A stretch of 57,394 bases of DNA from an uncultured Eubacteriales bacterium (GTDB lineage Bacteria > Bacillota > Clostridia > Oscillospirales > Ruminococcaceae). A program made the translations under genes and the position numbers. How positions within the stretch are numbered: the first letter of the stretch is position 1; each line of letters opens with the position of its first letter. The stretch covers positions 1-57,394 of the forward strand of contig ONMZ01000005.1 of assembly GCA_900319075.1 (NCBI GenBank). Direction: 5' to 3'. The notes under the pieces are model-generated. The model was not told the origin of the DNA. It did no database searches and saw nothing but the letters and a program-made list of their open reading frames with translations. Positions 239-4,092 of the stretch are shown here, one piece after another.

Positions 239-442
239 CTAAAATATTACCGCCTTGCCGTCGCACAGTTGATAAAACCCGCTCTCGCAGGTGGGTACCA
301 GCCCAATGACTTCTCGCTCCCAACATCCGTACATACACGGCACAAAGCCGGCGTATGCCGGGAGGTCTGCAATCCGTTTCTCGGAGACCCAGTTCCCTTT
401 TAATTGTGTGTTGGATTTATAATGACCGTGCTTAACGCACAA
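239..442 (-). CDS. Small unrecognised protein, possible
   Basis: A 67-codon minus-strand frame starting with TTG at 442. It is the only content of a compact unit: a promoter-like pair (TTGAAT, 17 bp, TATTAT) lies upstream, AGGAAAAG precedes the start by about 12 nt, and a strong terminator follows the stop. The product has four cysteines (PCMYGC, PTCE, QLCDG) besides Cys2 and an HGHY motif near the N-terminus, suggesting metal binding, but no family is recognised. The unit could equally make a small RNA. A dyad ATTGTAC/GTACAAT at 516-537 sits upstream of the -35. Confidence 0.35.
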   Translation of the reverse strand: MCVKHGHYKSNTQLKGNWVSEKRIADLPAYAGFVPCMYGCWEREVIGLVPTCESGFYQLCDGKAVIF

Positions 443-490
443 GGCAGAAATCTCTTTTCCTGTTATTATAATACCACAATCTCACCAATT

Positions 491-547: not shown

Positions 548-889
548 TCAGCTGAAATGCTTGTCCTCTGCGCCGCCGAGCTCTTCCTCGTCGTCAAAGT
601 CAAACATCTCCTCGATGCGCTTCATGAATATGTCGCCGATCCTCTCGTACTCTTCATCGTCATCTATGGACGCAAGGATCTCATCGTTGTTTTCATCAAA
701 CTCGGATCTTAATATAACTACCTCTCCGGGATCATCAAGCATATTCTCAAGATCATCCTCGTCGTAATAAGGAGTCAGCGCATAGTATTTCTCGCCCTCA
801 TATTCCATCACATCCAGAAGCTCAAAGCTCTGCTTGTTCCCCTGTTCGTCTTCTAGTTCATACAGATCCGGTGTGTATTCTTCGTTCAT
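548..889 (-). CDS. DUF1292 family protein (YrzB-like)
   Basis: A very acidic protein of 113 aa when started at ATG 889. The central part (ELLDVMEYEGEKYYAL, then DDPGEVVILR) fits the DUF1292 pattern of small Firmicutes proteins of unknown role. The frame stays open upstream to TTG 1015, giving 155 aa, but the added N-terminus is basic and atypical, and DUF1292 proteins are usually about 90-110 aa, so 889 is preferred. The SD near 889 is weak (GAGG too close), so the start is uncertain. A perfect SigA promoter at 1042-1070 would leave a leader of roughly 145 nt. Confidence 0.8.
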   Translation of the reverse strand: MNEEYTPDLYELEDEQGNKQSFELLDVMEYEGEKYYALTPYYDEDDLENMLDDPGEVVILRSEFDENNDEILASIDDDEEYERIGDIFMKRIEEMFDFDDEEELGGAEDKHFS

Positions 890-1041
890 GTCCTCATTCA
901 GCCCCCGTTTCGTGCGGAAGCCTCCCCCTTTCCTATATAAATCTCCGCCCGGTACTTTCCCCCGGTCAGAAACTACCCTATATACAGCAAAACGGCTAAA
1001 CAAAAAGGCTATCAAGCCAACTTGCCCGCCGCAACAACTTT

Positions 1042-1129: not shown

Positions 1130-1157
1130 TTGACAAGTAACAAAAAGTGTGCTATAT
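1130..1157 (+). promoter_or_regulatory. SigA promoter of the 1.4-kb putative ncRNA
   Basis: TTGACA (1130-1135), 17-bp spacer, TATATT (1152-1157). No start codon with a good SD follows within 200 bp. Confidence 0.8.
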
Positions 1158-1446
1158 TGTATACAAGAAATCAAGAACCGAACAGCTCACTTGGAGGTGA
1201 GGCTGAACGCAGGCGGAAAGAGCGGCACACCGGCGCAAGTGTACAGAGCGTTCGCAGGTGGTTTTGTATAGTAGGCAGACGGCTGCATACATCTGACCGA
1301 TGTTTCTGTAGCAAAGCCGAAGACAAGCGGTTTTAGATTACTTAGATCGAGAACTATACCGGATCAAAGTGAACACGCTGCGAGCTTTTGATTTTAATCG
1401 AGAGCTATGGATACAGCGAGGTACTCCGTGAAGTTTAATCAGACAC

Positions 1447-2480
1447 GAAAGGAGCGAGTCCCATGGGCGCACTGGATATTAAGAGCGGTAGCCATAGGCT
1501 CGGCGGTTTGGATAGGTAAGAGTGATCGGGACACGGACGTGAGAGCCGTCAGATCAGAAACAAATGATTTACATAAAACTTAACCGCCTTGCCTGATGGA
1601 ACACGAACTAATTTCAGACCTTCAAAGCAAGGCTGCCATATTTTACAACAGAATATTTACCGGCTTGGATGCCAAAAGTGAAACAACAATTATTATTTTA
1701 TCGGAATGGAGCTGTTTCCCATGCACACTTTTAAATATTTTGACGAGAAAGAAATATGATGAAAGAGTGATTCCGGTGGGATATGTATTTTAGCTTATAA
1801 GACCTCGTATATATGTTTTAGGGGTGATGCACTATGAAAATAGTTTGCACAAGGTTCTTAAACATCTGAAATGAAGGAGTGAGTCCGCCAAGACATTTAC
1901 GAGTTTGAAGCTCTATTTTAAAAGAATTCTGAACTGATTTTACAGACGGGAGTGGTGCACTATGAAAATTCCGTGCACAAAGTGTTTGAATATTTGACAG
2001 ACAGGGGTGAGACCGCCAGAAAGTTCAGTTTGATAAGCTTTAGTTGAAAGCTTTACTTGATTTGATATCATTCTATCCGAAAGGAAATTAAACCAATGGC
2101 TTGATTAAGACGCATTTGATAATGCACGTACTTTAAATTATTACTTTTACCATTGTCCGCAGATTTCATATTTCCACAGGTAATAAATCCGGAAGGTCGG
2201 TATTTTTCGATAGTCCGGACCTATTCGGAGATTGATCCGAGAGAAATAGCTGATTTCTGTCGACGAAATACAATGAAGGGCGTGAGTCCAAAGTACTATT
2301 TATAATTTCAATTTGACTTTACGATAATTTACCGAAAGGTGTGAGTCCGAAATTCTATTTTAAATGAATGATGTGAACAGCGTTTGTTCACTCACAGGAC
2401 GTTAATTTTACGAAAGGTGTAAAGTCCAATGGCTTAATTTGATTTCAAACCAATTATTCTTTTTGATTGGAGTGAGTTGC
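1447..2480 (+). repeat. Dispersed GAAAGGnGTGAGTCC motif, 8-9 copies
   Basis: Copies start at 1447 (GAAAGGAGCGAGTCC), 1761 (GAAAGAGTGATTCC), 1873 (GAAGGAGTGAGTCC), 2002 (CAGGGGTGAGACC), 2079 (GAAAGGAAATTAAACC, weak), 2275 (GAAGGGCGTGAGTCC), 2334 (GAAAGGTGTGAGTCC), 2412 (GAAAGGTGTAAAGTCC) and perhaps 2465 (GATTGGAGTGAGTT). Each could form a tiny GGn/nCC hairpin with a GTGAG loop. The copies at 2079 and 2412 also share the following CCAATGGCTT. Confidence 0.7.
1820..2018 (+). repeat. Tandem duplication, period 128 bp
   Basis: 1826-1889 and 1954-2017 align along their whole length: a TGCACTATGAAAAT block, a TGCACAA block, then the repeated motif ending GAGnCCGCCA. GTGCAC...GTGCAC in the second copy makes a 6-bp stem. 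Each copy contains an SD-like stretch and an 11-codon frame (MKIVCTRFLNI at 1834-1869; MKIPCTKCLNI at 1962-1997). A more diverged third relative lies at 1705-1776. Confidence 0.65.
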
Positions 2481-2531
2481 GATGTGCTAACCAAATTTAG
2501 TACATTATGCATTTAAATAGTTGAAATATAC

Positions 2532-2559
2532 AGAGAGCAGCTTTTTGCTGCTCTCTTTT
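2532..2559 (+). terminator. Terminator of the putative ncRNA
   Basis: AGAGAGCAGC / GCTGCTCTCT with a TTTTT loop, followed by TTTT. Confidence 0.9.
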
Positions 2560-3840: not shown

Positions 3841-4092
3841 ATGATAGAATACAGATACGATACTCAGCTTCTTATTGATGCCGAGAATCTCGACGAGGAC
3901 GAGGTAAGCGAATACTTTGAAAAGAACTTTAAGGGTGACTGCCTTCTTGCCATTGGTGATGAAGAGGTAATGAAGATCCATTATCACACCAACGAGCCGT
4001 GGAAGGTGCTTGAATATTGCGCTTCTCTCGGTGAGATCTATGACATAGTTGTTGAGGATATGGACAGACAGTCAAGAGGTCTGAAGGGTTGA
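3841..4092 (+). CDS. Stand-alone DAK2/FakA C-terminal-like domain
   Basis: An 83-aa protein. GDCLLAIGDEEVMKIHYHT, then a conserved-looking PWKVLEYCASLGEIYDI stretch, closely follows the domain found after DAK2 in fatty-acid kinase FakA-type proteins (GDSLLVVGDDDLVKVHVHT in typical members). Here the kinase part is absent and the domain is a gene of its own. The start is ATG 3841, with AAGGAGGG 8 nt upstream; the frame extends to 3721 but without an SD. The function is unknown; a regulatory or subunit role is possible. Confidence 0.75.
   Translation: MIEYRYDTQLLIDAENLDEDEVSEYFEKNFKGDCLLAIGDEEVMKIHYHTNEPWKVLEYCASLGEIYDIVVEDMDRQSRGLKG

What the first reader, a model, noticed from the sequence alone, without database searches (positions are those of the whole stretch)
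1130..2559. 1.4-kb promoter-to-terminator unit with no recognisable protein
A perfect SigA promoter and a strong terminator bracket about 1,400 nt that lack a convincing gene. The first 400 nt can fold into several hairpins, and the rest carries a recurring motif. Large, structured bacterial RNAs of this size are rare and mostly of unknown function. It is the best candidate here for an undescribed element.
Basis: partly seen in the sequence, partly recalled or inferred. Interest (0 to 1): 0.85.

Follow-up and report, generated by a model that had tools for sequence, protein, structure and literature searches.

The report
Structured RNA packed with micro-genes
Ruminococcus and its relatives carry a 1.4-kb stand-alone RNA that looks noncoding but is studded with ribosome-binding sites, many driving genes of only 2 to about 20 codons and some driving none, which suggests an RNA built to catch ribosomes rather than to make a protein.

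Summary
In detail: a promoter (window 1130-1158) and a terminator (2532-2556) bracket a unit without a conventional gene. It is found in 27 of 29 genomes of its genus (Ruminococcus, by named matches) and in 22 of 126 sampled genera of the family, usually divergent from DUF1292. No Rfam, phage or plasmid match was found. The "recurring motif" is an extended Shine-Dalgarno (SD) box. Most boxes precede an AUG opening a micro-ORF: one of 13-23 codons, several of 10-13, many of 2-3. Selection for translation is visible: frame-specific synonymous bias in the longer two classes, frame kept in 50 of 50 length-variable units, and stops by the fourth codon in 82 of 87 SD-AUGGC sites, using all three stop codons. 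Other boxes lack a start codon; many follow a micro-ORF stop by 6 nt (38 of 48). Covarying helices show structure too. So: a large structured RNA, but not noncoding. Favoured mechanism, inferred: ribosome capture. Main rival: a multi-micropeptide mRNA. No transcript, ribosome or peptide was measured. I found no described RNA class with this architecture.

The parts
1130..1158 (+). Promoter, TTGACA-17-TATATT with extended -10
   Evidence: present in all 8 close homologs aligned; resembles rRNA promoters of the genus
1165..2556 (+). Predicted transcript (start inferred about 7 nt after the -10; end at the terminator)
1183..1205 (+). 5' hairpin CAGCUCAC..GUGAGGCUG
   Evidence: consensus fold of 8 homologs
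1447..1461 (+). Extended SD box of ORF1 (GAAAGGAGCGAGUCC)
   Evidence: 16S tail read in L054, L055, L057
1463..1519 (+). ORF1, 18 aa (MGALDIKSGSHRLGGLDR); counterparts of 13-23 aa in 43 of 44 loci (the other, L048, is cut by a contig end)
   Evidence: frame-specific synonymous bias
1492..1599 (+). Closed domain: helices 1492-1499/1591-1599 and 1502-1508/1582-1588, with the 3' end and stop of ORF1 inside
   Evidence: compensatory changes
1721..1759 (+). Micro-ORF MHTFKYFDEKEI with GGAG at 1708-1711
   Evidence: a nucleotide-invariant stretch is read in another frame in L032, so coding selection is not claimed here
1776..1793 (+). GTG micro-ORF (5 codons); GTG-TAA or ATG-TAA in the 7 close relatives
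1834..1869 (+). Micro-ORF MKIVCTRFLNI; AUG within a predicted hairpin
1876..1884 (+). SD box without start codon, 6 nt after the stop ending at 1869
1901..1913 (+). Hairpin GAGUUUGAAGCUC
1962..1997 (+). Micro-ORF MKIPCTKCLNI; AUG within a predicted hairpin
2004..2014 (+). SD box without start codon, 6 nt after the stop ending at 1997
2035..2053 (+). Hairpin whose stem differs in sequence but can pair in relatives (by eye)
2079..2104 (+). SD box and two-codon ORF Met-Ala-stop (ATG GCT TGA at 2096)
2275..2289 (+). SD box without start codon (AAG in the AUG position)
2334..2348 (+). SD box without start codon (AAA in the AUG position)
2412..2437 (+). SD box and two-codon ORF Met-Ala-stop (ATG GCT TAA at 2429)
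2469..2490 (+). SD and two-codon ORF Met-Cys-stop (ATG TGC TAA at 2482)
2532..2556 (+). Intrinsic terminator
548..1015 (-). Divergent DUF1292 gene, usual neighbour of the unit
   Evidence: Pfam PF06949; found beside the unit in 22 of 23 genus loci and 18 of 20 family loci
243..453 (-). 6S RNA, downstream of DUF1292
   Evidence: Rfam RF00013

Best explanation
The unit is a stand-alone structured transcript that works as an array of ribosome landing sites. Shown by sequence: extended SD boxes at initiation spacing before micro-ORFs whose frame and early stop are kept by selection; further SD boxes without a start codon, many of them fixed about 6 nt after a micro-ORF stop; helices with compensatory changes. 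Inferred: the RNA is abundant; ribosomes load on many sites at once; they terminate within 2 to about 20 codons, and the start-less boxes hold 30S subunits after termination or directly. The transcript thereby sequesters ribosomes (and, through Met-Ala-stop units, initiator and alanine tRNA), or reports how many are free through translation-dependent refolding, instead of producing a protein. That translation occurs I hold at about 0.9; that ribosome capture is the function is the weaker step and sets the confidence.
For: SD-preceded AUGs: 237 against 72.6 +/- 8.6 (max 93) in 200 Markov simulations over 24 loci; 200 of the 237 have 12 or 13 nt from the first G of GG to AUG. SD plus AUGGC, 44 loci: 72 of 87 stop at the third codon and 10 more at the fourth, with TAA 37, TGA 20, TAG 15; AUGGC without SD stops that early in 5 of 35. 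SD-AUG ORFs of 20 chosen loci cluster at 2-3 codons (70 of 175) and 10-13 codons (57 of 175); other AUGs show 57 of 400 at 2-3. Ten-aa units selected by nucleotide box alone (50 units, 36 distinct blocks): synonymous fraction 0.442 against 0.205 expected in frame, 0.104 and 0.105 in the other frames (expected 0.153 and 0.148); the AUG-to-block distance is 12, 15, 18 or 27 nt, in frame in 50 of 50. ORF1: 0.431 against 0.185; other frames 0.197 (expected 0.19) and 0.106 (expected 0.194). Start-less boxes: 48 of 48 units have an SD-like GG 3-6 nt after the stop (6 nt in 38), none with an AUG at initiation spacing. Box density. Two-codon ORFs are too short for their peptide to be the likely product (reasoning).
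Against: No RNA-seq, ribosome profiling or binding data were available. ORF1 and the 10-aa units show amino-acid-level selection, which pure ribosome capture would not need. Five of eight start boxes of the window are of ordinary strength, -8.0 to -10.4 kcal/mol, against a median of -10.1 for the best candidate start of 54 window ORFs (the GTG site was measured 2 nt off). The AUGs of the 10-aa units lie in predicted local hairpins (38 of 38 distinct units), which could lower initiation, although these are only mildly more stable than shuffled sequence (mean z -1.25). Six further nucleotide boxes of this type in the 24 genus loci have no AUG. PMC8708949 (passages) says very short minigenes with strong SD can be toxic, though its own natural minigene was not; high expression would need explaining.
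Confidence: 0.45

Rival explanations
1. A polycistronic mRNA for a family of micropeptides, comparable in layout to Drosophila tarsal-less: ORF1 (M-D-x-x-E) and repeated [R/K]-x-L-N-I or F-H-D-x-N peptides are the products, and the 2-3-codon ORFs are decayed or regulatory units.
For: Frame-specific synonymous bias; Glu or Asp at position 5 of ORF1 in 42 of 43 loci, with GAG, GAA and GAT codons; 10-aa units multiplied in several relatives.
Against: Many ORFs have 2-3 codons and are themselves under selection to stop there; start-less SD boxes are conserved; no gene other than DUF1292 and 6S RNA was seen to be constantly linked, but only seven window proteins and 6S were searched for.
Confidence: 0.25
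2. A translation-dependent RNA switch: ribosome transit through the micro-ORFs decides how the covarying domains fold, and the folded RNA (not ribosome capture) acts on a protein or RNA target.
For: ORF1's 3' end and stop lie inside a covarying domain; AUGs of 10-aa units lie in predicted hairpins; a covarying, pseudoknot-compatible stem follows start-less boxes in the R. albus-type loci.
Against: No target known; much of the RNA between boxes is poorly conserved even among close relatives.
Confidence: 0.2
3. Noncoding scaffold: the boxes are protein- or RNA-binding motifs that only resemble Shine-Dalgarno sequences, such as sites for CsrA.
For: Some boxes have no start codon; the motif also has local self-complementarity (GGN..NCC, seen by eye).
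Against: Start-codon spacing, stop selection and codon bias; several boxes lack the GGA core expected of CsrA sites (2275, 2334, 2412; sequence, motif recalled).
Confidence: 0.07
4. An untranslated or decaying relic, conserved by neutral inheritance.
For: The 5' third is highly variable between relatives.
Against: Architecture persists in genera that BLASTN did not link; covariation.
Confidence: 0.03

Closest known systems
Two-codon minigenes / mini-ORFs (for example in the axe-txe operon and the EHEC LEE1 leader, as described in PMC8708949, passages)
   Same: SD plus ATG-codon-stop units; the passages note that binding to a strong SD alone may stabilise mRNA, and that short minigenes with strong SD can be toxic.
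   Different: There single minigenes act in cis upstream of a gene; here several to many lie in a stand-alone terminated transcript with no downstream gene on the same strand before the terminator.
STAB-SD mRNA stabiliser (cry3A; PMC4113751, passages)
   Same: SD-like box that can pair with 16S rRNA without starting translation.
   Different: A single 5' element protecting an mRNA; here repeated, internal, and coupled to micro-ORF stops.
Large ornate RNAs OLE, ROOL, GOLLD and the raiA motif (PMC12286853, passages)
   Same: Large structured bacterial RNAs of poorly understood function; the solved ROOL came from cow rumen.
   Different: No covariance match; ROOL and GOLLD are described as prophage or phage encoded, often near tRNA islands; this is a fixed chromosomal locus. 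The passages seen describe no micro-ORF array.
tarsal-less polycistronic micropeptide RNA of Drosophila (recalled; papers only listed)
   Same: One long 'noncoding' RNA with repeated ORFs of about 11 aa.
   Different: Here bacterial, SD-driven, with 2-3-codon ORFs and start-less boxes.
Peptide-coding bacterial sRNAs (PMC5521070, abstract)
   Same: Transcripts thought noncoding that carry short ORFs under selection.
   Different: The abstract speaks of ORFs of 10-50 aa in sRNAs; it describes no array.

Membership tests
ROOL, GOLLD, OLE, raiA motif | Match to the family's covariance model | tested here: not met
   Rfam 15 gathering search of the window gives only 6S; evalue search of 1020-2720 lists none of them; 9 relatives give only 6S and RNase P. 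PMC12286853 (passages) took GOLLD, ROOL and OLE profiles from Rfam but built its own for raiA; whether raiA is in this Rfam copy was not checked.
ROOL, GOLLD | Phage or prophage location, often near tRNA genes | tested here: not met
   No tRNA in the 57-kb window; no match in phage records; one 21-nt pattern absent from viral contigs; usually beside DUF1292
tmRNA | tRNA-like domain and tag ORF | tested here: not met
   ARAGORN finds none in the window
Two-codon minigene regulator | SD + AUG + one codon + stop | tested here: met
   72 of 87 SD-AUGGC sites
Two-codon minigene regulator | Lies upstream of and acts in cis on a gene | tested here: not met
   Position only: terminator at 2532-2556 and next gene on the opposite strand in the window
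STAB-SD element | SD-like sequence that does not direct initiation | tested here: inconclusive
   Boxes without AUG at initiation spacing, by sequence only; initiation was not assayed
STAB-SD element | 30S binding blocks RNase J1 and stabilises the RNA | not testable with these tools
   Needs biochemistry
CsrB/RsmZ-like CsrA sponge | Repeated GGA-core sites | tested here: not met
   Boxes at 2275, 2334 and 2412 have GGGCG or GGUG; motif recalled; presence of CsrA was not searched
Polycistronic micropeptide mRNA | Several ORFs under amino-acid-level selection | tested here: met
   ORF1 and the 10-aa units; not the 2-3-codon ORFs
Polycistronic micropeptide mRNA | Peptides made and active | not testable with these tools
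   No proteomics
Leader or attenuator RNA | Controls a downstream gene on the same strand | tested here: not met
   Position only: own terminator; the downstream aldo/keto reductase is on the other strand and was matched in 9 of the 23 fetched genus loci, some of the rest being cut by contig ends

The most novel reading that the evidence does not exclude
A ribosome-trap RNA: an abundant structured transcript that titrates ribosomes (and initiator or alanine tRNA) by offering many SD boxes with dead-end micro-ORFs or no start codon, near 6S RNA, which does the analogous job on RNA polymerase (function of 6S recalled).
Probability: 0.35. Interest if true: 0.95.

Novelty: categorically new. Interest (0 to 1): 0.85.

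Why it matters
Bacteria are known to regulate ribosome availability through protein factors and ppGpp (recalled); an RNA that loads many ribosomes onto two-codon ORFs would be a different principle, and would turn minigene toxicity into an evolved device. If instead the peptides act, it would be an unusual bacterial multi-micropeptide RNA. Either way, an intergenic region without a conventional gene appears to hold a densely translated locus. Matches include named Ruminococcus albus and R. bicirculans strains, so it can be tested in culture.

Tried and rejected
Rfam at gathering and permissive thresholds: nothing convincing; the permissive hits (15, best SSRC38) are all far below their cut-offs and mostly lie over the terminators. 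Phage, plasmid and viral collections: nothing. A helix between the ORF1 SD spacer (CGAGUC) and GGCUCG inside ORF1 looked attractive: 92.7% of cells pair, but the covariation score is not beyond shuffles (58 of 500), so it is not claimed. RNAalifold found no pair in alignment A2. Hairpins after the start-less boxes (44 segments) and around the AUGs of the 10-aa units are not individually exceptional (mean z -0.80 and -1.25). Consensus folds of several 200-column windows are no better than shuffled (z +0.4 and +0.6 for alignment columns 600-800 and 900-1100). For the two helices with covariation, two of the five measures, pairs with a change on both sides and further pair types, did not exceed shuffles; the other three did (0 of 500). 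ORF1's C-terminal part is not conserved as protein: some relatives carry a frame-shifted version with another early stop. The MHTF ORF has a 20-nt invariant stretch read in another frame in L032. An rRNA-like promoter was considered as a sign of growth control; the resemblance is only partly specific, since other window promoters share TTGACA with a similar -10. My first codon test used 10-aa units that I had selected partly by their amino-acid ending, which biases it; I repeated it with units selected by nucleotide box alone, and the result stood (0.442 instead of 0.467). The 48 units carry the same selection. Other families of the order: 23 genomes examined upstream of DUF1292, none with an array (0-3 scattered SD-ORFs each; two of the stretches were 500 nt or less).

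Several lists were capped, and most subscription journals are not in that library.

Full report
What is there. The window's 1130-2559 unit has a near-consensus promoter (TTGACA, 17 nt, TATATT, 11 of 12 matches, TG before the -10) and a 10-pair terminator at 2532-2556. It lies between a divergent DUF1292 gene (548-1015, minus strand) and an aldo/keto reductase on the minus strand. At gathering thresholds Rfam finds only the 6S RNA at 243-453 in the whole window; permissive thresholds add nothing credible. No tRNA or tmRNA is in the window.

Conservation. BLASTN finds the unit in 24 of 61 genomes (own genome included), all 24 among the 29 of its own genus, and once in its own genome. A sequence-only model of a repeated 87-nt unit (R1) finds it in 26 of 29 genus genomes. 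Together that is 27 of 29; in the other two no DUF1292 gene was found either. In the family, 39 of 247 genomes and 22 of 126 genera match, own genus included, with filters that lose weak matches. The true share is probably higher: two family genomes without a match (G029, G032) show the array on inspection, while G031, G034 and G036 do not. DUF1292 lies beside the unit in 22 of 23 genus loci (L048 begins at a contig end) and in 18 of 20 family loci. In the order, 8 of 394 genomes match, six of them in the same family and two weakly in other families. Of 23 genomes of other families inspected upstream of DUF1292, none carries an array. A 21-nt pattern hits 27 stretches of the species-genome collection, titled Ruminococcus (including R. 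albus 8, AR67 and KH2T6, R. bicirculans 80/3, FC2018 and YE71), uncultured Ruminococcus, Clostridia or Clostridiales. No viral, phage or plasmid match was found. In 17 of the 18 other-family genomes of this sample in which both were found, 6S RNA lies within a few hundred nt of DUF1292 on the same strand (coordinates; the exception is G037), so the new unit was probably added beside an older neighbourhood (inference).

The recurring motif is a Shine-Dalgarno box. The 16S tail of the genus reads GGATCACCTCCTTTCT (L054, L055, L057); boxes such as GAAAGGAGCGAGUCC are close to its extended complement (inspection). The transcript holds 10 sites of -12 kcal/mol or better; 60 Markov controls average 1.5 (sd 1.4, max 7), the antisense strand has 0, nine coding stretches of equal length average 1.0. 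Over 24 loci, 237 AUGs have an SD box against 72.6 (sd 8.6, max 93, 200 simulations), and 200 of the 237 sit 12 or 13 nt from the first G of GG.

The AUGs open micro-ORFs. ORF1 (window 1463-1519) has counterparts of 13-23 aa in 43 of 44 loci. Units of 10-13 codons, mostly ending in L-N-I, recur one to several times per locus. Two- and three-codon ORFs recur throughout; among 122 listed ORFs of at most three codons, 62 are Met-Ala-stop, and 23 of 24 genus loci have at least one (the exception, L038, is cut short). Evidence that these are translated: synonymous changes are enriched only in the right frame for the 10-aa units (0.442 against 0.205 expected; other frames 0.104 and 0.105; 50 units, 36 distinct blocks, selected by nucleotide box alone) and for ORF1 (0.431 against 0.185; other frames 0.197 and 0.106); in the 50 units the distance from AUG to the conserved 3' block varies (12, 15, 18, 27 nt) but is in frame in 50 of 50, and that block is followed by TGA in 42 and TAA in 6; SD-AUGGC sites stop at the third codon in 72 of 87 cases and at the fourth in 10, using TAA 37, TGA 20 and TAG 15, whereas AUGGC without SD does so in 5 of 35. 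Six further boxes of the 10-aa type have no AUG; three of them have TTG in about its place (by eye). Pairs of related sequences are not independent, so these are effect sizes, not P values.

Start-less boxes. Each 10-aa unit examined (48 of 48) has an SD-like GG 3-6 nt after its stop codon (6 nt in 38), with no AUG at initiation spacing; in the 46 with a complete box the triplet in that place is AAG in 21, CCA in 15, CCG in 5 and CCT in 5. In the window two more such boxes, at 2275 and 2334, which do not follow a micro-ORF stop, have AAG or AAA where AUG would be, and the same is seen in the seven close relatives.

Structure. The ORF1 domain (window 1492-1599) has 8 of 30 consensus pairs in which at least one sequence changed both sides (10 sequences); its inner helix has 6 cells changed on both sides and a covariation score that no shuffle reached (0 of 500), though the number of such pairs (2) and of pair types did not exceed shuffles. 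In the R. albus-type loci the start-less box is followed by a pseudoknot-compatible pair of stems: 98% of cells paired, 35 cells changed on both sides, all in stem 2, 0 of 500 shuffles as high, slid controls at most 8; again the numbers of changed pairs (4) and pair types did not exceed shuffles, and stem 1 hardly varies and is unproven. Against: the spacer helix of ORF1 does not exceed shuffles, and some consensus-fold windows are unremarkable.

Function. Shown by sequence: transcription signals, conserved SD boxes, selection on frames and stops, covarying helices. Inferred: expression, ribosome occupancy and the function. I favour ribosome capture because two-codon ORFs are unlikely to act through a peptide, because start-less boxes sit at a nearly fixed place behind stops, and because box density far exceeds chance. 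PMC4113751 (passages) describes STAB-SD, an SD-like box that binds 30S without initiation and blocks RNase J1; PMC8708949 (passages) describes two-codon minigenes, their cis effects, and toxicity by peptidyl-tRNA release that grows with a strong SD. These are precedents for the parts, not for the whole. The rival that the peptides themselves act is real, because ORF1 and the 10-aa units show amino-acid-level selection.

Novelty. In the lists returned, none of my ten literature searches named such an element, and no Rfam family matched. I rate the architecture categorically new, with the caution that subscription journals are mostly not searchable here and nothing was measured.

Noticed in passing
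window 243-453 (-) and 548-1015 (-): 6S RNA lies downstream of the DUF1292 gene; in 17 of 18 sampled genomes of other families with both, the two are likewise close and on one strand.
   Followed up: partly
L182 (G002:C30) and G002:C42: Genome G002 shows the unit and DUF1292 on two contigs, either a duplication or a redundant assembly.
   Followed up: no
window 3841-4092 (+): An 83-aa protein made of a stand-alone FakA-like middle domain (PF21645) precedes YlxM and Ffh.
   Followed up: no
L047, L048, L050: In R. albus-type loci the 10-aa unit, start-less box, pseudoknot-like stems and Met-Ala-stop ORF form a repeat of roughly 215-225 nt, expanded in tandem.
   Followed up: partly
L087, L088, L089, L090: Upstream of 16S genes of the genus lie one to four tandem promoter-like sites with TTGACAA and often an AAAAGTGTGGTATAAT-like -10 region, similar to this unit's promoter.
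   Followed up: no
L121: In this relative the array is followed closely by the RNase P RNA gene.
   Followed up: no
L110, L116, L120, L121, L122, L123: Several family loci have micro-ORFs with a shared F/Y-H-D-x-N motif near their end (for example MFMRLLKRTFHDMNI) in place of RLLNI (by eye).
   Followed up: no
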